NCBI GenBank assembly: GCA_963555705.1
Contig: OY743176.1
Location: 45,027,026 to 45,091,025, forward strand
From: Ligustrum vulgare
Lineage: Eukaryota > Streptophyta > Magnoliopsida > Lamiales > Oleaceae
Reading direction: 5' to 3'
Length of the DNA: 64,000 nucleotides
The notes under the pieces are model-generated. The model worked only from the letters and a program-made list of their open reading frames with translations. It ran no database searches and was not told the DNA's origin. Both the position numbers and the translations under genes were made by a program. Position 1 is the first letter of the stretch, and each line of letters opens with the position of its first letter. Shown piece by piece: positions 3,860 through 44,165 of the stretch.

Positions 3860-3981
3860 AAGTTGATCTTGCCCTACAATCCAGTTGCCATCTGCCCCTC
3901 TTAGCCTATTGATAGTATTTTTCCTTCTTCTCTCTGTAGCTCTCTTGTGAAAGAACTTTGTGTTGCGATCCCCCCTATCAT

Positions 3982-5046: not shown

Positions 5047-6412
5047 GATGTCCGACAGTCCTGTTTCACAGGACTCGCTAGTTTGTAATTGTTCAAAATG
5101 ACCTCCATCTCCCCACTAACCTCCTTCCCCATGCTTCTTTTATCCCCTCCCACCTCCTCCCCTGTCCATGGTAATTTGCTTTTGCTCTTTGGGCTTGCCT
5201 TCACTCCGTTGATAGAGTTACCTGGCCCACCTAATAGAAGTCTTTTACCTGGAGAATATATTGCAGGCCCCCTCACACCCCTCGCCAATTTTTTCCACCT
5301 TTTCCCTCTTACATGACTGTTTGAATAACTCCCCTCCATACTACTGGTCATCCCTGCATTTTGTTCTGCATTGTTTTTCCTCCCTTCATTGTTCAATTTC
5401 TCCCTGTCCCCATTCTCATATTTATCGTCAGCCCCTCCAGCCTCTGCTTCCTTCCTATCCATTTCATCTGACTCCTTGTTATTGGATCCTTCCCTTTCTG
5501 TCCATGCTGCCCCCCTTTGAATTCCACTCTTCATTTCCCTGGTTGGACCGATTATGGCCTCTGATCATCACCCCCTATCACCACTGCCCAATGATTCTCT
5601 AAAATCTCCTTCCTCGTTGCTGTCCGTCTTGGAACTTACTTTTGCTCCATATGATCTCCTCGAGGAGTTTTGTTTCTGTTTGCCTCCATTAATTTGGGCC
5701 CTGATTTTATCGTTATATTTTAGCGCTTCCACGCCTCCTTCGAGCACTCCTTCCTGTAAACATTCATTTAATCTATGTCCCATAACTCCGCAGCGGAAGT
5801 ATAGAACCGATAGCCTTTCGTATTGTAATGGAACCACAAATTCCTTCCCTAATGACTCAAGATGCACAAAAACTCCTTTTTTCAGTGTCTTGGCTATGTC
5901 CAGTAGGACTCTCACTCTTGGAATAATACTTGCATAATCGGTTTCCATAACTTCCCCAATGAGCTTGCGTATTCCTCGTAATGCCCGGTCTGTATGACAA
6001 ACTAAGGGCACATTCAAAAGATGGACCCAAAATACAGTAGTATTGAACTCCATTCTCAAGAGATCTCCTGTCTCATCCGAGTTTTTAAGGATTAGAAGTT
6101 GGTTATTGAAGAGCCATGGCCCCCCCTTAAGATCCCTTAGCCTATATGACGTCGAACCAAAATGGAAGGTAAAAACATTTGGGTTACCTTTGGCTTCAAC
6201 TTTCAGACCTCTTGTGAGCTGCCAAACCAGTCGAAAACCCTCTCCACTGCCTCCCTATTAGCCACCTTCGCACTGACCACTTTTCCAACCAGACACGATT
6301 TCAGGTTTGTTAAGCCCTCGTTACACACTTCTTCACCAATGGAGATCTTTGAATAGTTGAAATCCTCAAGTTTAAGTTGCTCACAAAGTTCTCTAATATC
6401 ATCAGGATCCAT
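5043..6412 (-). pseudogene. LINE ORF1, DUF4283 protein, broken
   Basis: The best start is the ATG at 6410-6412 (protein begins MDPDDIRELC); an upstream in-frame GTG is unlikely to be used. The first piece runs to about 6203, then a frameshift moves to the frame covering about 6200-5568, which has the DUF4283-like FTFHFGSTSYRLRDLKGGPW and a zinc-knuckle-like YFRCGVMGHRLNEC. In that knuckle the position expected to be the first Cys is Tyr. A third open piece, 5534-5043, is basic, rich in G, K and E, and of low complexity. It ends in a stop overlapping the ORF2 start codon. ORF1 proteins of this family bind the element RNA. Confidence 0.85.
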
Positions 6413-7350: not shown

Positions 7351-8119
7351 TGATGCTGTAAAAATTCCTAACCTTGACGTGGCAAGATCTGGAGTTGCTT
7401 GATCACTGGAAAAGATAAATGAATTCTCCTTGAATGCCCTGCAAAAAAGGTGAGGAGGATTCTCTCTATCACCCATCCGGTGTGAGAATTAGTTTTCTGG
7501 TGAACGAAAAGTAGAGAGAGAATATATATATAACTGGAAAATATGTTGTGTTATGAATATTCGATCAGAAAAGCTGTATTTATAGCGCTCAAAAGCCTGC
7601 AACCTTCTTTTACTGTGAGAAGGAGTCCTATTTGTGTAAACTTACCTTTTAAGAGAAGAATCCTTATAAAGATTGAACTCCCCATTTTTTATTTAGGATG
7701 TTTCCTTATGGAGTGCATCTTGTCTTGGGGCCCAAGAATGTTGCCCATTGGTGAAGCCCATATACGAAGAAGGCTTTGAGTCCTGTATGCATTGGGCTTT
7801 TGGTGTAATAAGGCCGAGATGAACAGACCATTAAATCCATGATATGGCCAGATAAATATGTGGCCGGGAGGACCCAACCTTAATGATAGGATATGGTCAG
7901 GCTAGTTGGCCGGCCTATGGACAAATGAACGGGATGACCTAGTTAGGTTGGGAAACATGCCCGATCTATATGATTGTGCCCGACCCGTTAGTTATTCGGT
8001 TAACCCTTTTGAAGAGATCGGGCACCTGGGTCGGTCTATTGGTCAAGATGGCCTGACTTGTATACTTCTAAGGCTTATAGCTCATCCTTGGATTTTATGC
8101 TGTGAAATCATACCTATCA
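7351..8119 (-). repeat. 3' LTR of the Tat-like element
   Basis: 769-bp LTR matching 29604-30393 with many substitutions and small indels. The boundary is set by TGATGCTG on the left, CCTATCA on the right and the GGGGC duplication. A short tandem copy of GGCCCCGTGCATC lies just inside the element at about 8120-8150, near where the polypurine tract should be. Confidence 0.9.
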
Positions 8120-8513
8120 TTGGCCCCGTGCATCTTGGCCCCGTGCATCAGGGATCGAAAATAAATCTCTGAATGCATTCATTTTTTGACAGCTATGATA
8201 TCTATTTCTTATGGCTAATGACGCGTTTTGCCAACTATTCTCTCTTCATTTAATGTGAGGAGGTGTACAGTGTTGATTCAGATTGTTGACACGTGTTCAA
8301 AGCGAAAGGTTGAGATTCAAAAACTTTCCCGCCATTTTTGTCTATATATATGTAGTACCTATCCTCCCTTTCATTTTACTTTGCGAAATTTTTTGAGAGA
8401 CCAACGAACTCCTTGAGCAAGTAGCACGATCTATCCCTATAGCAAAAGTAGTACTTTAGGTAAGCTCGACCTTTCCTGACCTCCTTATTTACATAACTTA
8501 TTTTTCACAAAAT

Positions 8514-9620
8514 ATGGTAAGGCAAGAGACCGTAGGAGACCTTAGGGAAGTAGAGGATCTGGACGAGCCTTTAGAGGTCGAGCCACTAGGTTTTTACGAG
8601 CCTCTACCTCCCCAGGATGAAGAATCGGTCAGTGAGGAGGGTGTAGAAAATAACCCAGATTTGGGTAGAGGGCCGAGTGAGGCCGACCTTGAGCTTCCAA
8701 CTTTTAATAGTAGGATGAAGGAGCATATGGTCAAGGCTGATATGAGGAAATTTAGGCTTTCTAATGCGTACACAACACGAGTTCCGAAAGAGGACGATGT
8801 GTCATATCATTGCTCGGAAGGGGAGATGATAGTGTTTCATGAGGCCCTTGTGGGTGGGTTTAGGCTTCCCCTCCATCATTTTTTTATTGACTTTCTCCTC
8901 ACTGCGAGCATAGTTCCGGGTCAGCTCGCCCCCAATGGATGGAGGATCTTGATGTGTTTTTTCGTTTTATGTAGGCCTTTAGGGATTGAGCCTACCATAG
9001 ATTTGTGTAAATGTCTTTTAGACCTGAAATACCTACCCTAGTGTAACTGTTTTGTGTATTTAAACGGGAAGGGGCGCTTCGAGGTCCCGTGAGTTCCTTC
9101 CTCCTTAAAGTATTGGAAGGAGAGGTTCTTCTTCGTGAAGCCCGGGGAAGGAGAGAACATATTTTTATCGACTTTTAGGAGGCCAGGCGTAGATAGCTTT
9201 AATAGGATGGGAAATAAGAGTGAGGAGGAGATGGTCGACCTTCTTGCCAATGCCATTAGAATATCTGACTTTGGCCTCTTGGCCCAGGAGGCGTCTGATT
9301 TGACGACTAATGAGATTTTGAGTCAGGCCGATCTTGACTTGCAGCCCGGTAGGTCGAGGCCTTGTAAATTAAGTAATTTGTACTTAACTTTTGTAATTTT
9401 TATGTTTTTTGGCTTTTGCTTCATATTCTTACCTTCTACTTTTTTGTATCCCACAGGAATGGCATTTGACGGGGATAAACTGAGGAAGCTGATAGAGGAA
9501 AAGGCTAGGAAAGCAGCACAGAAAAGAAAAGATGATGGGTTCATGCGACACTGATACCAAAAAAGGCCTCGCAAGGATAAGTCCGGCATGGGGGAGACTT
9601 CCAGGAGGAATACAGAGGTT
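8514..9620 (+). pseudogene. Antisense extra ORF of Tat element, 5' part
   Basis: A plus-strand ORF inside a minus-strand element. The first 175 codons (8514-9041) have an acidic start and then the conserved block PLHHFFIDFLLTASIVPGQ followed by NGWRI, typical of the 'putative gypsy type transposon' domain family (Transposase_28). After a frameshift and a stop, YWKERFFFVKPGEGE continues the family pattern. A likely 108-bp intron, 9349-9456, has GT...AG borders, and removing it keeps the frame into MAFDGDKLRKLIEEKARK. The ORF is cut at 9628 by the nested Athila-like element and resumes at 17236. The protein's function is unknown. Confidence 0.78.
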
Positions 9621-9628
9621 CCCCCTCA

Positions 9629-11068
9629 TGCGTGTCGCAATGCACCAAAATAATAATTAAATTCCTTGTTCACTATTACTAAGAATATAGCAGTGGAAGC
9701 AAGGGTCGATCCCACGAGGAACGGGAACTAACTTAGTGTCATGTCAATTAGAATCGTAAAGGGGGGGTTTTGGTTTGAGTTGTTTGTAAATGATTTAACT
9801 AATAAAATAAAGCAATTAAAATGATTGAAATAAATATCAAATGTTGACGAGTCCTAGTTCTCAGGTTCAGTTGTATTCTATCACAATGTTATCACTTTCC
9901 AAGTAACGCGAGTTCAATTTCTTCTTTGATTTATCACCCGTAAATAGTTAATAAGCTCTAACTATTCCGATTCTCCCTTAATTGCATTTAATTAGAATAA
10001 GCTCTCTAATCAAACATTAGCCATTGAATAACCTAAAACAAGCTCCTTAGATTTAAGACAACAACTATATAATGGTTGAGAAGAATTATGGTGAATTAGG
10101 TTATCAATCACACAAGCTCGTGACAATTAACCTAAGTTGGAATTCTCAATGAAAATTATTAAATTTCCACTTGCTACTATGATTTGAACAACAAGACGAT
10201 TACGGATCCAATCATTCAAAATAGCAAATCTCAATACAACAAATTAAATGATAAGGCCTTAATCAAATAAAGAATTGCATTGATTGAATAAAAAACGCAT
10301 AAGAATCCAACAAATCAAAGTAAAGAATTTAGAACTACGTTACTAGTTTGGAAAAGCAATAACAAATTGATATGAAATACAACTTCCCCTTCGAACTAGG
10401 TATGGAAGCTTAGCCACTCAAAGCCATGAAAAATTCTGGAAGTTTCTTTTCTTGATTCGCCTTCTCGAGTCGCTGAATTCTTCTTCCAATCTCCAAGCAA
10501 GCCGCTCCCTCTTTCAATAATTATTTCACACTTTTTTCTGTCATGAGAACCCCTTTTTATAGCCTCAATTTCGTGCCCTAGCTTTGGGACCAAGAAATCC
10601 AAAATTATGGAAAGAATTGAAATAAGGAAATTTTTGACTAGAATAGTTACGGCCGTAAGTTTTCCTTTACGGCCGTAAAGGAGTTTCTGCACATTTCTCG
10701 CAATTTGAAGTTACTGCCGTAACACATCCATTTACGGCCGTAAATACGTCTCTGCAATTTTTTCCAAATGAAGGTTACAGCCGTGAGTATCCATTTACGG
10801 CCGTAACTCACATTCTGTTGATTTTCCTTAATATGTTGAACACTCTTACGGTCGTGAATATTCATTTACGGCCGTAACTCAATTTTGCACCCAAGGTCCC
10901 CAATCTTCGATTTTAAGCGCATTTTGGTCCTTTTTCCTTCTTTTCTCTTCCTTTGTGATCCTATACAATATAAAACATAAATTGCATTAATAATACTTAG
11001 ATAGAATCACATTATGGCATATTCAAGGACATAAGTGTATAAAATAAACGTTAATACAACACTTATCA
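9629..11068 (-). repeat. 3' LTR of the Athila-like element
   Basis: 1440-bp LTR. It contains eight copies or variants of the 12-bp palindrome TTACGGCCGTAA at 10647-10877, three of them altered inside the GGCC core relative to the other LTR. Just inside the element, on the minus strand, GTGTGGGGGGATT is the polypurine tract. Confidence 0.93.
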
Positions 11069-15786: not shown

Positions 15787-15795
15787 AAAATTTGA

Positions 15796-17235
15796 TGCGT
15801 GTCGCAATGCACCAAAATAATAATTAAATTCCTTGTTCACTATTACTAAGAATATAGCAGTGGAAGCAAGGGTCGATCCCACGAGGAACGGGAACTAACT
15901 TAGTGTCATGTAAATTAGAATCGTAAAGGGGGGGTTTTGGTTTGAGTTGTTTGTAAATGATTTAGCTAATAAAATAAAGCAATTAAAATGATTGAAATAA
16001 ATATCAAATGTTGACGAGTCCTAGTTCTCAGGTTCAGTTGTATTCTATCACAATGTTATCACTTTCCAAGTAACGCGAGTTCAATTTCTTCTTTGATTTA
16101 TCACCCGTAAATAGTTAATAAGCTCTAACTATTCCGATTCTCCCTTAATTGCATTTAATTAGAATAAGCTCTCTAATCAAACATTAGCCATTGAATAACC
16201 TAAAACAAGCTCCTTAGATTTAAGACAACAACTATATAATGGTTGAGAAGAATTAGGGTGAATTAGGTTATCAATCACACAAGCTCGTGACAATTAACCT
16301 AAGTTGGAATTCTCAATGAAAATTATTAAATTTCCACTTGCTACTATGATTTGAACAACAAGACGATTACGGATCCAATCATTCAAAATAGCAAATCTCA
16401 ATACAACAAATTAAATGATAAGGCCTTAATCAAATAAAGAATTGCATTGATTGAATAAAAAACGCATAAGAATCCAACAAATCAAAGTAAAGAATTTAGA
16501 ACTACGTTACTAGTTTGGAAAAGCAATAACAAATTGATATGAAATACAACTTCCCCTTCGAACTAGGTATGGAAGCTTAGCCACTCAAAGCCATGAAAAA
16601 TTCTGGAAGTTTCTTTTCTTGATTCGCCTTCTCGAGTCGCTGAATTCTTCTTCCAATCTCCAAGCAAGCCGCTCCCTCTTTCAATAATTATTTCACACTT
16701 TTTTCTGTCATGAGAACCCCTTTTTATAGCCTCAATTTCGTGCCCTAGCTTTGGGACCAAGAAATCCAAAATTATGGAAAGAATTGAAATAAGGAAATTT
16801 TTGACTAGAATAGTTACGGCCGTAAGTTTTCCTTTACGGCCGTAAAGGAGTTTCTGCAAATTTCTCGCAATTTGAAGTTACGGCCGTAACACATCCATTT
16901 ACGGCCGTAAATATGTCTCTGCAATTTTTTCCAAATGAAGGTTACGGCCGTGAGTATCCGTTTACGGCCGTAACTCACATTCTGTTGATTTTCCTTAATA
17001 TGTTGAACACTCTTACGGCCGTGAATATTCATTTACGGCCGTAACTCAATTTTGCACCCAAGGTCCCCAATCTTCGATTTTAAGCGCATTTTGGTCCTTT
17101 TTCCTTCTTTTCTCTTCCTTTGTGATCCTATACAATATAAAACATAAATTGCATTAATAATACTTAGATAGAATCACATTATGGCATATTCAAGGATATA
17201 AGTGTATAAAATAAACGTTAATACAACACTTATCA
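15796..17235 (-). repeat. 5' LTR of the Athila-like element
   Basis: 1440-bp LTR, nearly identical to 9629-11068. It contains eight ACGGCCGT-centred palindromes (16814-17044), most of them perfect TTACGGCCGTAA, spaced about 20 to 45 bases apart. Confidence 0.93.
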
Positions 17236-23373: not shown

Positions 23374-24126
23374 TGATGCGAACCCCTTCGGTATATGGAC
23401 CGAAAATTCCCACAACAATTTAATACAAAACCCAAGAAAGCTAAAGTGGTAAAATAAGTGATAAACACCTTAACCCAAGTTTAAATCTAACCCAAAATTC
23501 AAGGATTAACTAACCCTAGCCCAATGGGTATCAACTAAACAAATTCCAAGGTGGCGGAAAATAAACAACAACACAAGAATAATAATACTCAAGCAAAGTT
23601 GATTAACTTCCAAGAAAAATACAAGAACAAAGGAGGTTTAACCTTACCTCAAAAGGAGTCTCTCTAGACTAAGCTCTCAAGAGCATCACAATGAACAACC
23701 AAGTTTTTTCTACAAATGAAAAAGAATGTGTATATAATGTACAAAATGGGCAAAAGGTGCAAATTTGGAATTTGCAAGAAAAACCCCGTTTTTGAGAAAC
23801 GGAGTGTTTCGGTCGACCGAACCATTTTCAGTCGATCACATGGTCGACCGAAATGGGACTTTTGGTCGACCAACTCTCAGCCGAACGCGACTGAGGCTGC
23901 CTTCAAAAATCCTCTACAGAGTTTCGGTCGGCCGGAGTGACTTTCGGTCGACCGAAATTGGCTTAGTCCAATTTCTTCTACTTTTTGGCTCCAATTTGAT
24001 TCTTGACTAGCTTTTCTTGACTTTAATTACTTGTTTAGCCTCGAATCTTGAACCTCCTTAGCATCGGATCTCGTCATGGGTCCCACAGGCTTGCGTATTG
24101 AGGTTTGACTTTCTCGGTTCTCATCA
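23374..24126 (-). repeat. 3' LTR of the RT-less gypsy element
   Basis: 753-bp LTR. Around 23810-23960 it has several copies of the palindrome GGTCGACC, often as TTCGGTCGACCGAA, with variants. Confidence 0.9.
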
Positions 24127-24177
24127 TCCCCTCACTCTTGAAAAGGATTCGACCTCGAATCTTGCTTGAGTGCACTA

Positions 24178-28115: not shown

Positions 28116-28863
28116 TGATGCCAACCCCTTCAGTATATGGACCGAAAATTCCCACAACAATTTAATACAAAACCCAAGAAAGCTAAAGTGGTAAAATAAG
28201 TGATAAACACCTTAACCCAAGTTTAAATCTAACCCAAAATTCAAGGATTAACTAACCCTAATCCAATGGGTACCAACTAAATAAATTTCAAGGTGGCGAA
28301 AAATAAACAACAACACAAGAATAATAATACTCAATCAAAGTTGATTAACTTCCAAGAAAAATACAAGAACAAAGGAGGTTTAACCTTACCTCAAAAGGAG
28401 TCTCTCTAGACTAAGCTCTCAAGAGCATCACAATGAACAACCAAGTTTTTTTTACAAATGAAAAAGAACGTGTATATAATGTACAAAATGGGCAAAATGT
28501 GCAAATTCGGAATTTGCAAGAAAAACCCCGTTTTTGTGAAACGGAGTGTTTCAATCGACCGACACGGTCGACCGAACCATTTTTGGTCGATCACATGGTC
28601 GACCGAAATGGGACTTTCGATCAACCAACCCTCATCCGAAGGCGACTCAAGTTGCCTTCAAAAATCCTCTACAGAGTTTCGGTCGACCGGAATGACTTTC
28701 GGTCGACCGAAATTGGCTCAATCCAATTTCTTCTACTTTTTGGCTCCAACTTGATTACTTTAATTACTTGTTTAGCCTCGAATCTTGAACCTCCTTGGCA
28801 TCAGATCTCGTCATGGATCCCACAGGCTTGCACATCGAGGTTTGAATTTCTCGGTTCTCATCA
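28116..28863 (-). repeat. 5' LTR of the RT-less gypsy element
   Basis: 748-bp partner of 23374-24126. It also carries several GGTCGACC palindromes (about 28556-28710), one more than the left copy. Confidence 0.9.
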
Positions 28864-29211
28864 CCCTTGCCTCAATTGCATGAGGGAAGCGACTGTCTTC
28901 TTAATCATTTTGCTGTTTGCAAAGAAGGCCGTAAATTTCTCAGTAAGATCGGCGAAGGAAGAGATTGACCCTGATGGTATTATGGAAAACCAATCTCGGA
29001 CAGCGTTGGTCAAGGTTTGCGAAAAGGCCTTGCACAGTATTTGGTCGGGAGCATTCTGCATGTCCATGACATCAATATAAGTATTCAAGTGGTTGTTGGA
29101 ATCTGTATTTCTGTCGTATTCCTTTATTCGAGGATACTTGAATCTTTCAGGCAAGGGGAATGACGTTAATTCAGGGGTGAATGGGGCTCTTCTTGTGAAA
29201 GAGGTCCGCAC
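28864..29211 (-). pseudogene. Tat-like gag, 5' part
   Basis: Upstream part of gag. The Retrotrans_gag pattern is clear: ERFKYPRIKEYDRNTDSNNH, then ILCKAFSQTLTNAVRDWF and SISSFADLTEKFTAFFAN. It ends at LMQLRQ where the nested element entered, and the 3' part continues at 23373. Confidence 0.87.
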
Positions 29212-29603: not shown

Positions 29604-30393
29604 TGATGCTGTAAAAATTCCTAAACTTGACATGGAAAGATCTGGAGTTACTTGATCATTGAAAAAGATGAATGTATTTGCCTTGAATGACTTGCAAAAA
29701 AGGCGAGGAGGATTCTCCCCGTAACCATTACAGTGTGAGAATTAGTTTTCTGATGAAAGAAAAGTAGAAAGATAAATATATAACTGGAAAATATGTTGTG
29801 TTATGAATATTTGATCAGAGGAGCTATATTTATAGGGCTCAAAAGCCCGCAACCTTCTTTTACTGTAAGAAGAAGTCCTCTTTTTGTAAACTTACCTTTT
29901 AAGAGAAGAATCCTTATAAGGGTTGAACTCACCCTTTTTATTTAGGATGATTCCTTATGGAGTGCGTTTTGTCTTGGGGCCCAAGAATGTGGCCCAAGAA
30001 TGTGGCCCATTGGTGATGCCCATATACGAAGAAGGCTTCGAGTCCATCATGTATTGGGCTTTTTGTGTAATAAGGCTGGGATGGACCGACCATTAAATCC
30101 ATGATATGGCTAGATAAAGATATGGCAGGGAGGACCCGACCTTAATGATAGGATATGGTCGGGCTGGTGGGCCGGCCTATGGACAAATGAACGGGATGAC
30201 CTAGTTAGGTTGGGAAACATTCCCGATCTATATGATTGGTCGGGCATTCGTACCCGATCCGTTAGTTATTCGGTTAACCCTTTTGAAGAGATCGAGCACC
30301 TAGGCCAGTCTATTGGTCAAGATGGCCCGACCTGTACACTTCTAGGGCTCATAGCTCATTCTTAGATTTTATGCCATGAAATCTTACCGATCA
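29604..30393 (-). repeat. 5' LTR of the Tat-like element
   Basis: 790-bp LTR, diverged partner of 7351-8119. The right end ACCGATCA abuts the GGGGC duplication at 30394-30398. Confidence 0.9.
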
Positions 30394-34843: not shown

Positions 34844-37824
34844 TGTAGCGCCCCGAGTTCCGTATACCCGATTCACTACGTCATTTTCTGTCTAAATTTT
34901 TCGAATAATATTTTTGCGGAAGAAATAGTTGAAATTCATTTTTGGCAACATTAAATAAACTGTAATGGCCGATAAAATTGAAAACATTTATGAAACCATT
35001 TGAAATAGTAAATCGAACCATTAATTTTGTAAAGAAATTGACAATGTCATAATTTCTCAAATAAATGAACTTCTCTAAATTATTCGATTGTTTGGAAAAA
35101 AATACGGAAATCATTAACGTCAAACTTTCAACCGTTTAACGATTATTGCCACCATCATTCATCGCTCACCACCGTCTCCGAAATCTGCAAAACTGTTAAA
35201 AAGTAGGGTGAGTATTTCATGGGGGAAATACTCAGTAGACTCATCGCAAATTAATTTAATTTATAAGATGATTAAACACATAAATCCCGGCTCTTTATAA
35301 AACGGGCATTGATAGAGCTTCTTTATAAAACTGCTCTTGATAAAACTCATATTGTGCATTACAGCACGGGACATATTTTGCAAATCATAGGCTCTTTGAA
35401 ATTAGCTCTTTGAAAACAGCTCTTTGAAAACCATATACTTATAAAAATATTTTAATTATGCCAAGCATAATTTCTTTTGAAAGCATAACATAAGATATGA
35501 TTGAAATCCTCATAAACATAAGAAGACACAAGAACTTTACCGAACTTAGGTGGCAAGAATTCTTATGCAGTAAAATCATAATAACAGTAAGTTTTCATCA
35601 TAACATAGGATAAGATCGAAATCCTCATAAATATAAGAATTTTACCGAACTTAGGTGGCAAGAATTCTTATGTAGTAAAATCATAATAACAGTAAGTATA
35701 CCAAAACATAATTCATGAAATTCATAGGGATCATTTTCATCATAACATAAGATAGGATCAAAATCCTCATAAACATACGCGACAGGAATTTTACCGAACT
35801 TAGGTGGTAAATCCTCATAAACATATGGAAAGACAGGAATTTTACCGAACTTAGGTGGTAAATCCTCATAAACTTATGGAGACACAAGAACTTTACCGAA
35901 CTTAGGTGGTAAGAATTCTTATGTGCATAGCAATGATCCAAAACATATAAAACATTATCGTAAAAACATAGGGTATACTTACTTTTCATAAAAACATAAG
36001 GTATATTTACCTTTCATAAAACATACTTAATTTTCTTGAAAATTGACTTTCACAAGTCACATGACATTTATATGAAATCATAATTTAAATCAATTAATAA
36101 GTGCGAGTCTACCTCAATCCGACGAGTGCAAAGTTGAGCGGGAATGACTTCAATTTCTTTAAATTCTCCGTACGCTTCGTCTTAGCCAATAAGTCACTTT
36201 AGTCTATCGAATATATAGTTCAAAATGATAAATTATAATTTGAGGACTAAAATTGATGTTTTGAAAGTTGAAGGACTAAAATGAATATCTTTGAAAAGTT
36301 GAGGGACTAAAATTGATACTTTTGAAACTTGAGCTTAAAAGTAAATCAGCAGGGACTGAAATGATAAGTTTGAAGCTAAAAGGACTGAATAAAACCTTTT
36401 TAAAACTTGAGGGGCTGATTTGAAATAACTTTAAAACTTTAAAAGGGCTGAAATAAACTATTCAAAGCTGTAGGGACTGATTTAAATCATTCAGAAAACG
36501 TAGGGACCAAAGTGCAAATTTCTGAAAAACTTAAAAATATATCCTCAGATCCGTTCTCTCTCTCTGTCAAAAACGCACTCCGTCTCTCTCTCTACTCACA
36601 TTCGTTTCAGAACGCAGAGAAGGGAGGGAGGAATATTCCGGTTTACAGCCGGTGGAACGCCGGCGAATCGTAGGTGTAAGGTGTGGCGAGCGACGGGAAA
36701 AGGGTGGAAGTTTTGATTTGGTTTCAGGTGCGAGGTTAGGCGCGAAATCGAAGTGTAACCTAGGTTTTGAATTCGCGACTTTCCGGCGAAAAAACCGGTC
36801 AATCAGTCGGCGGTAGAGGTATTGTTCTGGTTCAGTAATTGGTTATCGATTTGGAGCGAATTTGATGTGAAACCTAGACACTGGAGGCTGAGTTTGGAGA
36901 TGCGATTTCCGGTGGAACTCCGGTCAAAACTGATTGGAGTTCGAGGTAAGTGCTATGGGTAAATTGATTCTTGGTTTTTGTTTTGGGTTTTATTTTGATT
37001 TGGGGCTTTGGCACTGAATTGGAGTTGGTCAGAGACTCGATTGGTTGATGGCAGTTGGGTGTTTTGGTTATGATTGAAGTGCTGCAGTGGACTGATGGTG
37101 TAAAAAGGGTGATTTGGGCAGTGGTGGAAATCCGGTGGTGGTGATGAAGTTGCAGTCGATGAGTGCAGACAGTGGTGGCTGGATTGCATTGTGATGGTTC
37201 GGACTATGAGTTGGAGGTGGTAACTTGACAGTGATGATACTGATTGCAGTGTAAATGGTTTGTGCAGTAGTTGCTAAGATGGAGATGATAATGGTGATAT
37301 AGTGGGTTGAATTTGATTTCTGAATGGTGATGAAGATGTATGCTTATATATATTGTATTGTGGAATCTAAGTACATGGAAGTGTGAGTTGTGCCATGAGT
37401 ATTGAAATGAAGATGGGGTAGATGATGATAATGATGAAGATGCTTTGCTTGTACAATTATGGTTTAATATAATGAAGGTTCGTGGCTATGGATTGATGCT
37501 GATAATAATGGAGCTGAAAAGGAATTTGTGGGTGGTGGCTATGGCTTAGAAAATTGACTAACTTCGATTAGGAAGCGTATTTAAAACAGATATATTTTCG
37601 GACTGAAAATATGATTTTGAAATAATACTTTGAATAAATAATTAAAATAACATAATTTTAGAAATTCGGATTTTAATTTAAAATCGAACAAATTCGATAT
37701 TTCTTGACTTGGCTAGACGAATTCGTCGCGGCGTTAACTTCAAAATAATAAATGAAATAGTAGCGACACAATTTTCTAAATATTAAAATAATTATTTATT
37801 GCATAAAAATTCTGGGTCGCTATA
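34844..37824 (-). repeat. 3' LTR of the LOG-bearing element
   Basis: 2981 bp, almost identical to 41185-44165; the one difference I found is at about 36608 (A here, T in the partner). Contents: a minisatellite (35503-35925), repeated GGGACTAAAATTGAT-like units (36230-36500), a CT-rich stretch (36550-36600), and on the plus strand a G-rich leader-like block ending in GAG|GTAAGTGC near 36945. Short frames inside it occur twice because the LTR does; none looks like a gene. Confidence 0.95.
35503..35925. repeat. LTR minisatellite
   Basis: Five units of about 50 to 110 bp sharing AATCCTCATAAACATA and TTTACCGAACTTAGGTGG, several with AAGAATTCTTATG. The same array recurs at about 41844-42266 in the other LTR. 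Confidence 0.85.
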
Positions 37825-38550
37825 ATCTTACCTCCTTAAAATAATTTCGTCCTCGAAATTAAACTTACTTAATCTTATAATTTCTGAATACTTAATCAGA
37901 ATCTCTTCTTCTTATCATCGAATATTCTCAAAATAATCAAAACAATTCCCAATCGTATGTAAAAATTTCATCATATCTTGTAGTTTTCATGTAACTTGTC
38001 ACTTATCATCGTATCATGTGACCTCAAATATTCGTATATATCTCTAAAATTTCAACAAATCTTTACTGACATATCGTATCATAATAATTTTTTCCTTTCT
38101 TATCATCGAAAATTCCCAAAATAATCAAAGAATTACCTGAATATTTTCTCTACGTAATATACCCAAACATATCAACATAATATCATCAACTTATCTTTCC
38201 AATATTTGTAACCCAAAATTCAGTAAACAAATATCTCCCAAAACTAAGATTCTATACTTAAATGTCACCACATTTCCTGCAAAGTATTTCTTTCACTTGT
38301 ATATACGTATGAATTCTGATTCAATACGGTACTCATTTTACTTTCCACGTATCATCACACTATACCAAGATTATCATTATTAAAACAAAATATCAGTACC
38401 CATAATCCAAGAAAATATTCCAAATCTCCAATCAAATCTCCTTTATCAATATAATTAACAGCGCATTACTTCTTGTCTCCTCTTTTCATTAAAATAATCC
38501 TGCGCTTTCTTGCTAGTCACAACATCACGCGGATTCACTCAGATCCTTTT
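37825..38550. other. Interior spacer with polypurine tract
   Basis: Non-coding, AT-rich. Its left edge carries the minus-strand tract AAGGAGGTAAGAT next to the LTR. At 38499-38532 the plus strand has GCGCTTTCTT and CACGCGG, a pairing that recurs loosely at 39169-39187 upstream of the LOG-like ORF. Confidence 0.6.
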
Positions 38551-38563
38551 CGCTTTTAAATAG
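38551..38563 (+). promoter_or_regulatory. CTTTTAAATAG box before the Cys-rich ORF
   Basis: CGCTTTTAAATAG, 33 bases before the ATG at 38596. A near copy, CGGCTTTAAATAG, precedes the LOG-like ORF. It could be a TATA box or, if the cassette is of RNA-virus origin, a subgenomic RNA start. Neither is shown. Confidence 0.45.
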
Positions 38564-38595
38564 TTCATGCTGAGAAGAGGTTGAATCATCAAACA

Positions 38596-39147
38596 ATGGA
38601 TATCATTCTTTCTAACATTCGCAAGTATTATTCCAGTCTTCCTATGAATGATCTGAGAAAGATCTATAAAATAAGGCTCGAAAGATTGAGGTTGCTGATG
38701 GCTCATGGTGTTCCAGAAGATGTTCGCTGGTTGATAGAAGCAAAGGTTCGACTATCTGGTGAATTACCAACAACATTTCTAAAGCACATGCCTGGTTTAG
38801 GCAAAAGCACTTTTGCAAAGAAACGAAGAGCAAAAAGACTGGGTGGTTGCTACAAATGTGCTCGTTGGAACTGTAATACTCGTTGCAAATCAGTAGGATA
38901 TTCTTCTACTAATCGGGATGATAAAATCGAATTCATAAAGGGTGGACTGAGTAAGGAGTCTTTGGATGATATTCGACTGACTCCTGAGACGCACCCAAGT
39001 GGTTATGTGCAACGTGAACTTCTCTCCTTATACACTCAATTTAACGAGGACAAAAATCGTTATAGTCTCCAAAATATAATAGCAAAAGATCCTGTTTGCC
39101 AGTCTGTTTTACAAAATGAGGCTTCTGGCAGTTCAGCAATGTTATAA
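38596..39147 (+). CDS. Basic Cys-rich protein, viral nucleic-acid-binding-like
   Basis: 183 codons from the first ATG (MDIILSNIRKYYSSL); an in-frame TTG 15 bases upstream is ignored. The centre is very basic, STFAKKRRAKRLGG, and is followed directly by a cysteine cluster, CYKCARWNCNTRC, then DDKIEFIKGGLS. A basic stretch running into a Cys cluster and then a short hydrophobic segment is the pattern of the cysteine-rich nucleic-acid-binding proteins of carlaviruses and related plant RNA viruses. Resemblance was judged by eye and is not proof of origin. The N-terminal 70 and C-terminal 60 residues are not recognised. No introns. It lies 300 bp upstream of the LOG-like ORF on the same strand and antisense to the element that carries it. 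Confidence 0.7.
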   Translation: MDIILSNIRKYYSSLPMNDLRKIYKIRLERLRLLMAHGVPEDVRWLIEAKVRLSGELPTTFLKHMPGLGKSTFAKKRRAKRLGGCYKCARWNCNTRCKSVGYSSTNRDDKIEFIKGGLSKESLDDIRLTPETHPSGYVQRELLSLYTQFNEDKNRYSLQNIIAKDPVCQSVLQNEASGSSAML

Positions 39148-39360
39148 GGTAAATCTTTTAAAATATTTTGCTGCTTTCTTTCACGCGTTTTGAAAATAAA
39201 ATATATTTTCCTTTTCTCGAGTTTTGATAAAGCTGGAAATAAAATATTAAATCGCCGAAAGGTGACAGCCTCGATACGATAAAAATATTCAAAAGTGGGC
39301 TGATTTTGTCAAAAGTAAATCTTTACTTTTTCAGAATCAATCAAAAACAGTAAATTTTTC

Positions 39361-39373
39361 CGGCTTTAAATAG
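39361..39373 (+). promoter_or_regulatory. CTTTAAATAG box before LOG-like ORF
   Basis: CGGCTTTAAATAG, 75 bases before the ATG at 39448. It matches the box at 38551-38563. Its repetition before each ORF suggests that each is expressed from its own start. Confidence 0.45.
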
Positions 39374-39447
39374 CCAAACATATTTCATAGTTCAGGCATC
39401 CCAAAATCACATCTTCTTCGTAAGTTTTCCTTTCTTTACTATCAAAG

Positions 39448-40101
39448 ATGGAAGCACCAAAACTTCGACAAATCAAAACTATTTGTGTATTTTGTGGATC
39501 AAAAGTAGGGAAAGGCTTCGGTTATCTAGAAGCGGCTGTAGATCTTGGAAAGAAACTGGGGGAAAAAGGTATCACTCTTGTATATGGGGGTGGTAGCAGT
39601 GGTCTAATGGGTTGTGTTTCCCAATCTGCTCTTGCAGAGAAATCAAAAGTAATCGGTGTTATACCTGTCCCTTTGGTAGATGTTGCAGGCAAAACACGAG
39701 GGCATGAAGTTCAAACCTTATCCATCCATGAACGCATAACTTGTATGTTATATGGTTCTGATGCCTTTATAGCCCTGCCCGGAGGTTTTGGTACCTTAGA
39801 AGAAATCTTTAACATTACCTCGTGGGCTCAACTAGATCTCCATACTAAGCCTATTGGGCTTCGGAATGTTAACAATTTCTTTGATGGTTTGTTAACTTTT
39901 CTTGATTATGCTGTGGAACAGGGATTCATCTCTCCATTTTCCAGAAGGCTTCTTATTTCTGCTCCTACTATTGATGAACTACTGGATAAGCTGCAGTCAT
40001 ATATCTCAATACAAGATCCAGCAGGAGTTAAGATAGATTGGTCGCAAGGAAGGGGAATCAAGCGAAAATGGAGTCCGGTTAATGTAAACTTAACTCTGTG
40101 A
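39448..40101 (+). CDS. LOG: LOG-like cytokinin-activating phosphoribohydrolase
   Basis: 217 codons, close to the usual length of plant LOG proteins. LOG enzymes release free cytokinin bases from cytokinin riboside 5'-monophosphates in the cytosol. Landmarks in order: ICVFCGSKVGKG (residues 12-23), LVYGGGSSGLMGCVSQ (44-59), VIGVIPVPL, IHERITCM (Arg 96 kept) and the signature PGGFGTLEE (111-119), then WAQLDLHTKPIGL and the C-terminal helix region. Known LOGs usually read RK in the Arg segment; here it is RI, which may alter substrate or activity. Host LOG genes have several introns but this frame has none, so it derives from an RNA copy. It sits inside a retrotransposon, antisense to it. No stop or frameshift is visible. 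Confidence 0.9.
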   Translation: MEAPKLRQIKTICVFCGSKVGKGFGYLEAAVDLGKKLGEKGITLVYGGGSSGLMGCVSQSALAEKSKVIGVIPVPLVDVAGKTRGHEVQTLSIHERITCMLYGSDAFIALPGGFGTLEEIFNITSWAQLDLHTKPIGLRNVNNFFDGLLTFLDYAVEQGFISPFSRRLLISAPTIDELLDKLQSYISIQDPAGVKIDWSQGRGIKRKWSPVNVNLTL

Positions 40102-40333
40102 ATCTTAGAATAGGTGGGGGTAGAGTACGGAGTATTCTCACTCTCGAGACACCCCTCCATTTACTAGGATTTCCTTAATGTTTAAATCTTGTGTGTACCT
40201 CAAAGGTTCCAGGTGGTAGATTACGGAGTATTCTTACTCTCGAAACACACCTCTTTGAAGGTTTCTTTATTTCCTCAAAAGATCAGAGGTGGTAGGATAC
40301 GGCTACTCCGGAAACACATCTCTCATTTTGAGG
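40101..40333 (+). repeat. Three tandem stem-loops after LOG
   Basis: Three related hairpins, 40101-40171, 40198-40261 and 40273-40333. Outer stems: AATCTTAG with CTAGGATT, CAAAG with CTTTG, and CCTCAAAA with TTTTGAGG. Inner stems pair GGTG-type and CACCT-type arms. The apical part is conserved: GGTGGTAG, TACGGAGTATTCT, CTCTCGAAACAC. Stem arms differ between units while pairing is kept, which points to selected or inherited RNA structure. Confidence 0.75.
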
Positions 40334-40421
40334 ATTATCCCATGCTTCTCTCGTTTGCTTTTGTGTGTTTCATGTATTTCCTTTCCAGTGTGACTCTTGT
40401 GTGTTCTCCTTATGAGAAAAT

Positions 40422-40427
40422 AATAAA
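40422..40427 (+). terminator. Possible poly(A) signal
   Basis: AATAAA, about 320 bases after the LOG stop and 90 bases after the last stem-loop, on the same strand as the two ORFs. Confidence 0.45.
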
Positions 40428-40459
40428 ATCTCTGCTATCATCTACTAAATCTCGTTTGT

Positions 40460-41169
40460 GATGTAAATGAACTTGCATGTCTAACCTTAATTCCTTTAGT
40501 AGATGCTTATCATATCATGCTCTTAATTCCAAACGATAAAAATTCTAGGCAGAGTTTCCCTTGTAATTTGGACTTATCCAAACCATAAGCATACTTCATA
40601 ACTCACAATAATAAATAACTCCACATTTAATCACAACGATAAAAAAAATATTGAAAACGATTCCAACACTTCAATATCATCAAAATATCTCATAATTCAA
40701 TTCATAATTCCTCAACATAACAATTTCAAATCATATTTTTCAATATCACAATATCACTTCCTTCCATACCTTAATTGGCTCAAAAGACTACTCATAATTA
40801 TAAATATATACCATAAATCATATTCCCTTATGCTCAACACTCGTTTTCTTTCTTAAAAAAAATTTCTCATAATCATACATTAAAGCATATAAGTTATGAC
40901 AAAGCATAACAACATCATTATTTTCGAAAGATACATTCTTATTTCTCATAAATCATAAGTATCCGAAATACTGTTCATTCTTTCTCATAAATCAATAAAA
41001 TGAGTATTCGAAATACTGAAATAACTTTAAACATCATAAACTTCTTTACCTCGGAGTTGGTGGAACGAATGATGGCAGTGGCAATCTTCATCAATAAAAT
41101 TTTATAATGGAAAATATTTCTTGAAAATTCTTTTTGAAAATTTTTTCCAGTCTACAGAAACGCAGACTA
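40460..41169. other. Interior spacer of the LOG-bearing element
   Basis: AT-rich non-coding DNA between the LOG-like cassette and the primer-binding site. No gag or pol remnant was recognised on either strand. Confidence 0.6.
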
Positions 41170-41181
41170 GCTCTGATACCA
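41170..41181 (-). promoter_or_regulatory. Primer-binding site, initiator tRNA-Met type
   Basis: On the minus strand TGGTATCAGAGC, three bases inside the 5' LTR. It shows that the element is transcribed leftward, opposite to its two ORFs. Confidence 0.92.
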
Positions 41182-41184
41182 ACT

Positions 41185-44165
41185 TGTAGCGCCCCGAGTT
41201 CCGTATACCCGATTCACTACGTCATTTTCTGTCTAAATTTTTCGAATAATATTTTTGCGGAAGAAATAGTTGAAATTCATTTTTGGCAACATTAAATAAA
41301 CTGTAATGGCCGATAAAATTGAAAACATTTATGAAACCATTTGAAATAGTAAATCGAACCATTAATTTTGTAAAGAAATTGACAATGTCATAATTTCTCA
41401 AATAAATGAACTTCTCTAAATTATTCGATTGTTTGGAAAAAAATACGGAAATCATTAACGTCAAACTTTCAACCGTTTAACGATTATTGCCACCATCATT
41501 CATCGCTCACCACCGTCTCCGAAATCTGCAAAACTGTTAAAAAGTAGGGTGAGTATTTCATGGGGGAAATACTCAGTAGACTCATCGCAAATTAATTTAA
41601 TTTATAAGATGATTAAACACATAAATCCCGGCTCTTTATAAAACGGGCATTGATAGAGCTTCTTTATAAAACTGCTCTTGATAAAACTCATATTGTGCAT
41701 TACAGCACGGGACATATTTTGCAAATCATAGGCTCTTTGAAATTAGCTCTTTGAAAACAGCTCTTTGAAAACCATATACTTATAAAAATATTTTAATTAT
41801 GCCAAGCATAATTTCTTTTGAAAGCATAACATAAGATATGATTGAAATCCTCATAAACATAAGAAGACACAAGAACTTTACCGAACTTAGGTGGCAAGAA
41901 TTCTTATGCAGTAAAATCATAATAACAGTAAGTTTTCATCATAACATAGGATAAGATCGAAATCCTCATAAATATAAGAATTTTACCGAACTTAGGTGGC
42001 AAGAATTCTTATGTAGTAAAATCATAATAACAGTAAGTATACCAAAACATAATTCATGAAATTCATAGGGATCATTTTCATCATAACATAAGATAGGATC
42101 AAAATCCTCATAAACATACGCGACAGGAATTTTACCGAACTTAGGTGGTAAATCCTCATAAACATATGGAAAGACAGGAATTTTACCGAACTTAGGTGGT
42201 AAATCCTCATAAACTTATGGAGACACAAGAACTTTACCGAACTTAGGTGGTAAGAATTCTTATGTGCATAGCAATGATCCAAAACATATAAAACATTATC
42301 GTAAAAACATAGGGTATACTTACTTTTCATAAAAACATAAGGTATATTTACCTTTCATAAAACATACTTAATTTTCTTGAAAATTGACTTTCACAAGTCA
42401 CATGACATTTATATGAAATCATAATTTAAATCAATTAATAAGTGCGAGTCTACCTCAATCCGACGAGTGCAAAGTTGAGCGGGAATGACTTCAATTTCTT
42501 TAAATTCTCCGTACGCTTCGTCTTAGCCAATAAGTCACTTTAGTCTATCGAATATATAGTTCAAAATGATAAATTATAATTTGAGGACTAAAATTGATGT
42601 TTTGAAAGTTGAAGGACTAAAATGAATATCTTTGAAAAGTTGAGGGACTAAAATTGATACTTTTGAAACTTGAGCTTAAAAGTAAATCAGCAGGGACTGA
42701 AATGATAAGTTTGAAGCTAAAAGGACTGAATAAAACCTTTTTAAAACTTGAGGGGCTGATTTGAAATAACTTTAAAACTTTAAAAGGGCTGAAATAAACT
42801 ATTCAAAGCTGTAGGGACTGATTTAAATCATTCAGAAAACGTAGGGACCAAAGTGCAAATTTCTGAAAAACTTAAAAATATATCCTCAGATCCGTTCTCT
42901 CTCTCTGTCAAAAACGCACTCCGTCTCTCTCTCTACTCACATTCGTTTCTGAACGCAGAGAAGGGAGGGAGGAATATTCCGGTTTACAGCCGGTGGAACG
43001 CCGGCGAATCGTAGGTGTAAGGTGTGGCGAGCGACGGGAAAAGGGTGGAAGTTTTGATTTGGTTTCAGGTGCGAGGTTAGGCGCGAAATCGAAGTGTAAC
43101 CTAGGTTTTGAATTCGCGACTTTCCGGCGAAAAAACCGGTCAATCAGTCGGCGGTAGAGGTATTGTTCTGGTTCAGTAATTGGTTATCGATTTGGAGCGA
43201 ATTTGATGTGAAACCTAGACACTGGAGGCTGAGTTTGGAGATGCGATTTCCGGTGGAACTCCGGTCAAAACTGATTGGAGTTCGAGGTAAGTGCTATGGG
43301 TAAATTGATTCTTGGTTTTTGTTTTGGGTTTTATTTTGATTTGGGGCTTTGGCACTGAATTGGAGTTGGTCAGAGACTCGATTGGTTGATGGCAGTTGGG
43401 TGTTTTGGTTATGATTGAAGTGCTGCAGTGGACTGATGGTGTAAAAAGGGTGATTTGGGCAGTGGTGGAAATCCGGTGGTGGTGATGAAGTTGCAGTCGA
43501 TGAGTGCAGACAGTGGTGGCTGGATTGCATTGTGATGGTTCGGACTATGAGTTGGAGGTGGTAACTTGACAGTGATGATACTGATTGCAGTGTAAATGGT
43601 TTGTGCAGTAGTTGCTAAGATGGAGATGATAATGGTGATATAGTGGGTTGAATTTGATTTCTGAATGGTGATGAAGATGTATGCTTATATATATTGTATT
43701 GTGGAATCTAAGTACATGGAAGTGTGAGTTGTGCCATGAGTATTGAAATGAAGATGGGGTAGATGATGATAATGATGAAGATGCTTTGCTTGTACAATTA
43801 TGGTTTAATATAATGAAGGTTCGTGGCTATGGATTGATGCTGATAATAATGGAGCTGAAAAGGAATTTGTGGGTGGTGGCTATGGCTTAGAAAATTGACT
43901 AACTTCGATTAGGAAGCGTATTTAAAACAGATATATTTTCGGACTGAAAATATGATTTTGAAATAATACTTTGAATAAATAATTAAAATAACATAATTTT
44001 AGAAATTCGGATTTTAATTTAAAATCGAACAAATTCGATATTTCTTGACTTGGCTAGACGAATTCGTCGCGGCGTTAACTTCAAAATAATAAATGAAATA
44101 GTAGCGACACAATTTTCTAAATATTAAAATAATTATTTATTGCATAAAAATTCTGGGTCGCTATA
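41185..44165 (-). repeat. 5' LTR of the LOG-bearing element
   Basis: 2981 bp, same length and almost the same sequence as 34844-37824. Such low divergence over 3 kb indicates a very recent insertion. Confidence 0.95.

What the first reader, a model, noticed from the sequence alone, without database searches (positions are those of the whole stretch)
34844..44165. A young retrotransposon that carries a LOG-like and a Cys-rich gene in place of gag-pol
Seen: 2981-bp LTRs, initiator-Met primer site and polypurine tract on the minus strand, no readable gag or pol, and two intact intronless ORFs on the plus strand. One has the LOG signature PGGFGTLEE. Known: LOG enzymes make active cytokinin and plant LOG genes have introns. 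Inference: a non-autonomous element captured, and now mobilises, a hormone-activating gene with a partner, both antisense to the element. Open frames in a near-zero-divergence element mean the cassette has not yet decayed, or is maintained.
Basis: partly seen in the sequence, partly recalled or inferred. Interest (0 to 1): 0.95.

Follow-up and report, generated by a model that had tools for sequence, protein, structure and literature searches.

The report
Retrotransposon with virus-like and LOG genes
A retrotransposon in an unnamed, apparently plant genome carries, in place of its own replication genes, two genes that natural selection has kept intact - one from the protein family of plant-virus silencing suppressors, one from that of cytokinin-activating enzymes - and the genome holds thousands of matches to them; the pair likely helps the element slip past the plant's silencing defences.

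Summary
In detail: 34844-44165 is a gag-pol-less LTR retrotransposon on the minus strand (LTRs differ at 1 of 2981 positions) with two intact plus-strand ORFs. The interpretation changes. (1) Not a lone recent capture: the LOG motif has 6462 matches in the 1.385-Gb genome (4 for the reversed control), and in 20 of 20 sampled loci LOG sits with all or part of the Cys-rich gene. (2) The Cys-rich ORF belongs to Viral_NABP/Carla_C4, the family of carlavirus cysteine-rich silencing suppressors. (3) The LOG lies in a separate clade with named members in rosids and asterids: catalytic Arg/Glu kept, the adenine-contacting Lys present in 1 of 120 relatives, an LxLxL (EAR-like) tail in 94 of 120 but degenerate here. 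(4) Both genes show purifying selection (between families dN/dS 0.06-0.11 for LOG, 0.14-0.22 for the Cys-rich gene). (5) The same 2-kb cassette, with TATA-like boxes, rides two LTR backbones with no other substantial similarity. On another plant contig the Cys-rich gene lies in sense behind an integrase. LOG domains in Gypsy elements were already reported; the viral-type partner, altered LOG and backbone-hopping cassette I did not find in print. The anti-silencing function is inferred.

The parts
41185..44165 (-). 5' LTR in element orientation
   Evidence: 2981 bp, one mismatch to the other LTR
34844..37824 (-). 3' LTR in element orientation
41170..41181 (-). primer binding site TGGTATCAGAGC (tRNA-iMet type, recalled)
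   Evidence: sequence; CTCTGATACCAA on the LOG side in 12 of 12 sampled family-1 loci
37826..37840 (-). polypurine tract (TTAAGGAGGTAAG)
   Evidence: like tract in 11 of 12 sampled family-1 loci
38291..40338 (+). cassette shared with a second LTR backbone (about 79% identity over the whole block with L012)
   Evidence: W oriented 3748-5795 against L012; shorter or split pieces against L009, L017, L024
38596..39147 (+). ORF A, 183 aa, Viral_NABP / Carla_C4 family, antisense to the element
   Evidence: above both Pfam cut-offs; 48 of 49 and 45 of 49 aligned family members at E 0.01
38848..38886 (+). Cys4 motif C85-x2-C88-x4-C93-x3-C97, preceded by the basic stretch KKRRAKR (zinc binding and nuclear role inferred)
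   Evidence: all four Cys in 20 of 20 copies compared (window included) and in 47, 47, 49, 48 of 49 aligned relatives
39448..40101 (+). ORF B, 217 aa, LOG-fold protein, antisense to the element; R96 and E119 at the catalytic sites, I97 in place of Lys, tail KRKWSPVNVNLTL
38555..38563 (+). TATA-like box TTTAAATAG before ORF A (promoter role inferred)
   Evidence: TTTAAATA in 12 of 12 copies aligned (window plus 11 of the 20 loci)
39365..39373 (+). TATA-like box TTTAAATAG before ORF B (promoter role inferred)
   Evidence: TTTAAA[TA]AG in the same 12 of 12 copies
40113..40158 (+). hairpin-forming repeat 1 behind ORF B (structure weakly supported)
40211..40253 (+). hairpin-forming repeat 2 (structure weakly supported)
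40284..40324 (+). repeat 3, nearly invariant in sequence between the families; the consensus fold pairs it otherwise
40423..40428 (+). AATAAA, possible poly(A) signal of an antisense transcript (inferred)
   Evidence: sequence

Best explanation
This is a non-autonomous LTR retrotransposon whose cargo is a selectively maintained two-gene cassette that likely works as a portable counter-defence module: a virus-type Cys-rich protein predicted to suppress RNA silencing, and a LOG-fold protein that would reset hormone state or transcription in the host cell. Shown: structure of the element, genome-wide number of motif matches, pairing of the two genes in the sampled loci, family membership of both proteins, purifying selection on both in the copies compared, the same cassette on two LTR backbones, and the residues that set this LOG apart. 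Inferred: each gene is transcribed from its own TATA-like box, antisense to the element's genomic RNA; the products are nuclear (basic stretches in both); ORF A binds nucleic acid and dampens silencing of the element, as carlavirus relatives do for the virus; ORF B either still releases a (modified) cytokinin or works as a nucleotide-binding co-repressor recruiter through an LxLxL tail (degenerate in this species); gag and pol come in trans from an autonomous partner that I did not find; selection acts on the element, because copies whose cassette works are the ones that escape silencing and transpose.
For: 6462 LOG-motif matches against 4 for the control; 9445 (LOG) and 8796 (NABP) first-look candidates. 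LOG with NABP over its length (17) or partial, inverted or decayed (3) in 20 of 20 fetched loci. Intact LOG in 17 of 22 own-genome copies held: 13 of 14 of family 1, 4 of 8 of family 2. Selection: LOG window-L009 15 nonsynonymous to 57 synonymous (54.9 of 72 expected nonsynonymous; P 6e-23), window-L014, two subfamilies of one backbone, 3 to 14 (P 7e-7); NABP 42 to 47 (P 1e-10) and 19 to 13 (P 0.013). Viral_NABP and Carla_C4 above cut-off. Of the first 12 viral-structure matches of the NABP model 10 bear names, all from viruses that I recall as Betaflexiviridae: 4 RNA silencing suppressors, 4 nucleic-acid-binding, 1 RNA-binding, 1 15-kDa protein. Carlavirus CRPs commonly act as silencing suppressors (PMC12172455; PMC10219291; passages). 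LOG fold: 2a33, TM 0.94 of the target. LxLxL end in 94 of 120 relatives, 0 of 120 canonical LOGs. Two backbones.
Against: No expression, small-RNA or protein data. The viral fold matches are weak (best E 0.045; TM of the query 0.14-0.21 in the first 12) on a moderate model (pLDDT 70, pTM 0.56), and the PDB gave nothing useful. In this species the tail is VNVNLTL-like; only L023 of 22 copies compared (window included) has LxLxL. The lost lysine may mean a dead or re-purposed enzyme: alanine changes of the residues named as AMP-binding or catalytic in C. glutamicum LOG gave almost complete loss of activity, S19A excepted (PMC4979012; the passage does not list each mutant). Two of three Orobanche fusion models have a broken motif (PGGYDTLNE). 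Antisense genes could form double-stranded RNA with the genomic transcript and so provoke silencing. The 150 scored copies are the best ones by selection, so their intactness proves little. Selection was not tested on DNA of other species. L031 carries NABP without LOG.
Confidence: 0.45

Rival explanations
1. LOG enzyme as meristem opener: ORF B is an active cytokinin-releasing enzyme that raises cell division and germ-line access of the element, and ORF A only assists it.
For: Catalytic Arg in 110 and Glu in 118 of 120 relatives, PGGxGTxxE in 108 of 120; LOG fold; lowest dN/dS of the pair.
Against: The adenine-contacting Lys is Met, Ile or Leu in 118 of 120 relatives and Lys in 120 of 120 canonical LOGs; 94 of 120 relatives carry a C-terminal LxLxL that 0 of 120 canonical LOGs have.
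Confidence: 0.25
2. Cassette as a benefit to the plant: the two genes serve the host (for example cytokinin supply or antiviral interference), selection acts on host fitness, and the retrotransposon is only the vehicle.
For: Both ORFs are under purifying selection; relatives stand in databases as ordinary plant gene models.
Against: Thousands of motif matches and at least 150 near-identical LOG copies fit selection on the element better; the pair sits in LTR elements of two kinds in the loci sampled.
Confidence: 0.12
3. Repeated capture from one host locus: a host NABP-LOG gene pair is under selection and different elements captured it at different times, so the signature is inherited from the host gene.
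For: The two backbones share little but the cassette, which repeated capture would explain; I made no search for a host copy outside LTR elements.
Against: Within family 1 the cassette descended with its surroundings (window-L014 flanks 79-97% alike) and still shows 3 nonsynonymous to 14 synonymous LOG changes; on another plant contig NABP lies directly behind a gypsy-type integrase.
Confidence: 0.1
4. Plain passenger genes: recent amplification carries intact but useless ORFs.
For: LTR pairs 98.5-100% alike in 11 of 12 family-1 loci show very recent transposition; 4 of 8 family-2 LOG copies are broken.
Against: LOG dN/dS 0.03-0.11 in pairs that include family 1 and 0.14-0.23 within family 2; NABP 0.14-0.39.
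Confidence: 0.05

Closest known systems
Gypsy elements with a YgdH (LOG) domain in Citrus and Populus (PMC9289625, citing Steinbauerova et al. 2011)
   Same: A LOG-family domain carried by plant LTR retrotransposons; Populus proteins are among the relatives of both ORFs.
   Different: Those consensuses were built around reverse transcriptase; the section read mentions no viral NABP partner, no two-gene cassette, no gag-pol-less carrier and no changed active site. The 2011 paper is not held.
Retand elements with antisense TRP28 ORFs (PMC11963269)
   Same: Conserved genes antisense to the element between the coding region and the 3' LTR, with predicted nucleic-acid binding (abstract and passages).
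   Different: No TRP28 in this element; there only 10 of 63 clusters lack one of the typical retrotransposon domains, here there is no gag-pol.
Carlavirus/betaflexivirus cysteine-rich nucleic-acid-binding proteins (CRP, NABP)
   Same: Pfam PF05515 and PF01623, Cys4 motif, basic stretch before it.
   Different: Here encoded by a retrotransposon, 183 aa, with stretches on both sides of the finger that are conserved among the plant relatives.
Canonical plant LONELY GUY phosphoribohydrolases
   Same: Fold, PGGxGTxxE, catalytic Arg and Glu.
   Different: Lys replaced next to the catalytic Arg, C-terminal basic and LxLxL tail in most of the 120 relatives, no intron in the ORF, separate clade.
Orchid gypsy elements with an m6A demethylase domain (PMC9289625)
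   Same: An accessory enzyme acquired by a plant gypsy lineage and kept.
   Different: Another enzyme, in Tat-related elements that have gag-pol, found in two Phalaenopsis species.

Membership tests
LTR retrotransposon | Long direct terminal repeats, PBS, PPT, target-site duplication | tested here: met
   the window's duplication is ATTTT or TTTT; clear 5-bp duplications in L010 (GAAGC), L009 (GTTTT), L021 (ATCAT), read
Autonomous LTR retrotransposon | gag and pol | tested here: not met
   window element. In the 20 sampled loci no frame exceeds 254 aa; of their other frames only two were scanned with Pfam (L022: none; L016 227-886: RVT_3, outside the shared element), so decayed remnants are not excluded
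Viral_NABP (PF05515) / Carla_C4 (PF01623) | Score above the curated cut-off | tested here: met
   32.7 against 23 and 27.4 against 20.9 bits
Viral_NABP / carlavirus CRP | Cys4 motif and basic stretch | tested here: met
Carlavirus CRP as silencing suppressor | Suppresses RNA silencing | not testable with these tools
   known for viral relatives (PMC12172455, PMC10219291, passages)
LOG (Lysine_decarbox, PF03641) | Family score, fold and PGGxGTxxE | tested here: met
LOG | Catalytic Arg and Glu (R99, E122 of C. glutamicum LOG) | tested here: met
   R96 and E119
LOG | Lys that contacts adenine (K100 of C. glutamicum LOG) | tested here: not met
   I97 in the window; Lys in 1 of 120 nearest relatives and in 120 of 120 canonical LOGs
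LOG | Cytokinin riboside 5'-monophosphate phosphoribohydrolase activity | not testable with these tools
   no assay
EAR-motif repressors | LxLxL motif | tested here: not met
   window tail VNVNLTL; present in 94 of 120 relatives and in 1 of 22 copies compared here (L023)
Retand-type antisense ORF | TRP28 (PF04195) domain | tested here: not met
   a TRP28 ORF lies elsewhere in the window

The most novel reading that the evidence does not exclude
Plant LTR retrotransposons share a portable counter-defence cassette, much as viruses share accessory genes: a plant-virus-type silencing suppressor paired with a re-engineered LOG protein. It has hopped between at least two gag-pol-less backbones in this genome, and its first gene sits in sense behind the integrase of a gypsy element in another plant. 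By disarming silencing and resetting cytokinin or TOPLESS-dependent transcription in meristems, it lets elements without replication genes reach thousands of copies.
Probability: 0.35. Interest if true: 0.95.

Novelty: new variant of a known kind. Interest (0 to 1): 0.82.

Why it matters
How plant retrotransposons escape RNA silencing is an open question, and few are known to encode a recognisable counter-defence protein (recalled). Here a gene of the viral silencing-suppressor family is kept under selection in a retrotransposon, next to a hormone-enzyme relative with a changed active site. Three things become directly testable: whether a retrotransposon carries its own silencing suppressor, whether non-autonomous elements can be selected for helper genes other than gag-pol, and whether accessory gene sets move between LTR backbones as units. 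It also warns annotators that some 'LOG' and 'viral NABP' gene models of plants may be retrotransposon genes.

Tried and rejected
Rejected: a single or recent host-gene capture (thousands of motif matches, own clade); decaying passengers (dN/dS). A carrier with the same LTR edge and gag-pol was looked for: of 13 exact PBS-LTR edges on C1 0-24.27 Mb (2043 genome-wide, control 0), 11 have a LOG motif 1.4-1.5 kb away; of the other 2, L029 is a cassette-less derivative and L030 a LOG copy broken off next to gypsy pol fragments, probably a nested insert. The autonomous partner was not found; a search with the second PBS-LTR edge did not complete.

Led nowhere: NABP in viral contigs (no relative); A1 in viral contigs (one distant match, 29%, not pursued); Rfam (one match far below the family's cut-off); NABP model against PDB (one match, E 8.4). 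RNA structure behind ORF B is only weakly supported: hairpins alone fold little better than shuffles (z -0.45 to -1.48), the covariation term is small (-1.73), 3 of 52 predicted pairs have changes on both sides (clearest G-C to U-A in 5 of 12 rows), and the consensus fold pairs repeat 3 otherwise.

Rows used: dN/dS rests on 16 LOG and 14 NABP pairs that I chose among 12 copies; L012 (LOG) and L013, L016, L027 (NABP) were left out as broken or partial; L017 and L023 were used with stop codons skipped; L001-L006 duplicate larger loci. The tree used 40 of the 120 LOG hits and 18 of the 120 canonical ones. Contig-length matching of the two lists used 57 of 120 NABP and 41 of 120 LOG rows and gave 3 equal lengths (suggestive only). 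The 20 loci are the first 20 motif places on C1, three tandem neighbours skipped. Papers not held. One search also listed two papers that contain 'PF01623' (PMC11168688, PMC7011430, on glyoxalases by title and abstract); I did not open them.


Full report
What is there. The element at 34844-44165 has two LTRs of 2981 bp that differ at one position. PBS and polypurine tract put it on the minus strand. Its 3.36-kb interior holds no gag or pol frame, only two plus-strand ORFs, so both are antisense to the element.

ORF A (38596-39147, 183 aa) passes the Pfam cut-offs of Viral_NABP (E 9.6e-8) and Carla_C4 (3.3e-6). A database search found 350 relatives, the best 120 listed, with named proteins of Orobanche, Populus, Acer and Xanthoceras. 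Of 49 aligned members, 48 match Viral_NABP and 45 Carla_C4 at E 0.01. Four cysteines (C85, C88, C93, C97) and the basic stretch before them are nearly invariant. A moderate AlphaFold model (pLDDT 70, pTM 0.56) gives only weak matches in the viral structure library (best E 0.045), but 10 of the first 12 have names, and all 10 are proteins of viruses that I recall as Betaflexiviridae: 4 called RNA silencing suppressor, 4 nucleic-acid-binding, 1 RNA-binding, 1 15-kDa protein. Carlavirus CRPs commonly act as RNA silencing suppressors (PMC12172455, passages); the potato virus M CRP suppresses intracellular silencing and its spread (PMC10219291, passages).

ORF B (39448-40101, 217 aa) is a LOG-fold protein (Pfam E 6.9e-33; 2a33 E 1.1e-56; model pLDDT 82 with a low-confidence tail from residue 201, TM 0.94 of 2a33). 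It keeps the catalytic Arg and Glu (R96, E119; R99, E122 in C. glutamicum, PMC4979012, passages) but has Ile where that enzyme has the adenine-contacting Lys100. In the 120 nearest relatives this site is Met, Ile or Leu in 118, Thr in 1 and Lys in 1; in 120 canonical LOGs it is Lys in 120. 94 of the 120 relatives end in LxLxL (within three residues of the end), against 0 of 120 canonical LOGs; 107 against 6 have a basic pair in the last 20 residues. The window's tail, KRKWSPVNVNLTL, is a degenerate form. The 120 are the best of 4512 hits, so this describes the near part of the family. In a tree of 63 sequences the 42 relatives (window and L009 included) form one side of a branch with 99/98 support, opposite 18 canonical LOGs and AtLOG8; the canonical set was picked by similarity to AtLOG3, so other LOG groups are poorly covered. 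Named members of the hit list come from Diospyros, Primulina, Populus, Reevesia, Melia and Parasponia. Two of three Orobanche NABP-LOG fusion models carry a broken motif (PGGYDTLNE).

Copies. The LOG motif matches 6462 times in the genome and its reversed control 4 times. First-look candidates number 9445 for LOG and 8796 for NABP; only the best 150 of each were scored, and those are full length without stops, which selection of the best would give anyway. I fetched 20 stretches of 10 kb around motif places on C1. All 20 hold LOG, with NABP over its length in 17 and partial, inverted or decayed in 3 (L013, L016, L027). Counting L007 and L008 too, LOG is intact in 17 of 22 own-genome copies: 13 of 14 of family 1 and 4 of 8 of family 2.

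Two backbones. Twelve loci share the window's kind of element: LTRs of 1.8-3.2 kb where a pair was in reach, iMet-type PBS in 12 of 12, like purine tract in 11 of 12, LTR pairs 98.5-100% alike in the 11 where a pair was found. Eight loci belong to another element with a different PBS (exact string in 5 of 8; it resembles the inside of tRNA-Ile, recalled) and a different polypurine tract (8 of 8); in L009 and L021 it is about 6.3 kb with LTRs of about 208 bp (TGTTATAA..TTATAACA) and 5-bp duplications. The cassette is antisense in both. Between the two, one block aligns (window 38291-40338, about 79%); outside it only short or simple-sequence matches (up to 154 bp, mostly in outer flanks) appear and identity falls to background. 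The block includes a TTTAAATA box before ORF A and a TTTAAA[TA]AG box before ORF B in 12 of 12 aligned copies and three related repeats behind ORF B, in a 240-bp stretch that stays 87% alike between families; their RNA structure is only weakly supported.

Selection. Between families (window-L009), LOG shows 15 nonsynonymous and 57 synonymous differences (dN/dS 0.06) and NABP 42 and 47 (0.18). Between two subfamilies of one backbone (window-L014), LOG shows 3 and 14, NABP 19 and 13. Within family 2 LOG gives 0.14-0.23. Binomial tests reject neutrality (LOG 6e-23 and 7e-7; NABP 1e-10 and 0.013); they treat changes as independent, and pairs share history. For window-L014 the flanks differ by 3-21%, which brackets the synonymous divergence (10-12%), so the cassette descended with the element while its proteins were held back from changing.

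Elsewhere. Three Orobanche gene models join NABP and LOG (P0022, P0023, P0027). A 3.3-kb contig titled as a bacterial MAG but plant by content (L031) has an integrase frame (rve, H2C2; gypsy-type by my reading) followed at once by an NABP gene in the same orientation, without LOG. So elsewhere too the gene lives in a retroelement, there in the place of an env-like gene.

Mechanism. Most likely the cassette gives the element a helper function other than gag-pol: a suppressor of silencing plus a protein that changes hormone state or transcription. That the genes are expressed, nuclear and anti-silencing is inference. Gag and pol must come in trans; none of the 13 exact PBS-LTR edges examined on C1 led to a gag-pol copy of the same family.

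Known and new. YgdH (LOG) domains in Gypsy consensuses of Citrus and Populus are in print (PMC9289625, section 12 read, citing Steinbauerova 2011, not held). So are antisense genes in Retand elements (PMC11963269, abstract and passages). A 2024 paper on plant LOG evolution has no mention of transposons (PMC11593424, term search). Searches for the NABP Pfam names or accessions (listings only) and for LOG with retrotransposon terms, LxLxL with retrotransposon terms and silencing suppressors with retrotransposon terms listed no paper whose title or printed start of abstract joins NABP to retrotransposons or describes this cassette; the library lacks most subscription journals.

Noticed in passing
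L031:104-2344 (DAIEQH010000041.1): Integrase frame followed in sense by an NABP-family gene, on a contig titled as a Nomurabacteria MAG: plant contamination by content, and a lead to an autonomous carrier.
   Followed up: partly
G000:C1 first 24.3 Mb; also C22:1306427-1326777, C23:10311292-10338627: Head-to-tail arrays of the element: 12 of the first 100 LOG-motif places lie in same-strand runs 6.4-6.9 kb apart; rows of 4 and 5 NABP copies at even spacing elsewhere.
   Followed up: partly
L029:1-2560: A cassette-less derivative with the same LTR edge, PBS and parts of the interior, about 2.2 kb between the LTR edges.
   Followed up: partly
window 7351-30393: An older LTR pair (7351-8119 / 29604-30393, 87%) around integrase and reverse-transcriptase frames on the minus strand and a plus-strand TRP28 (PF04195) ORF at 8460-9038: looks like a Retand element with younger elements nested in it (9628-11068 / 15795-17235, 99.3%; 23374-24130 / 28116-28866, 91%).
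   Followed up: no
window 35761-35912 and 42102-42253: Tandem copies offset by 48 bp (CCGAACTTAGGTGG..) inside each LTR.
   Followed up: no
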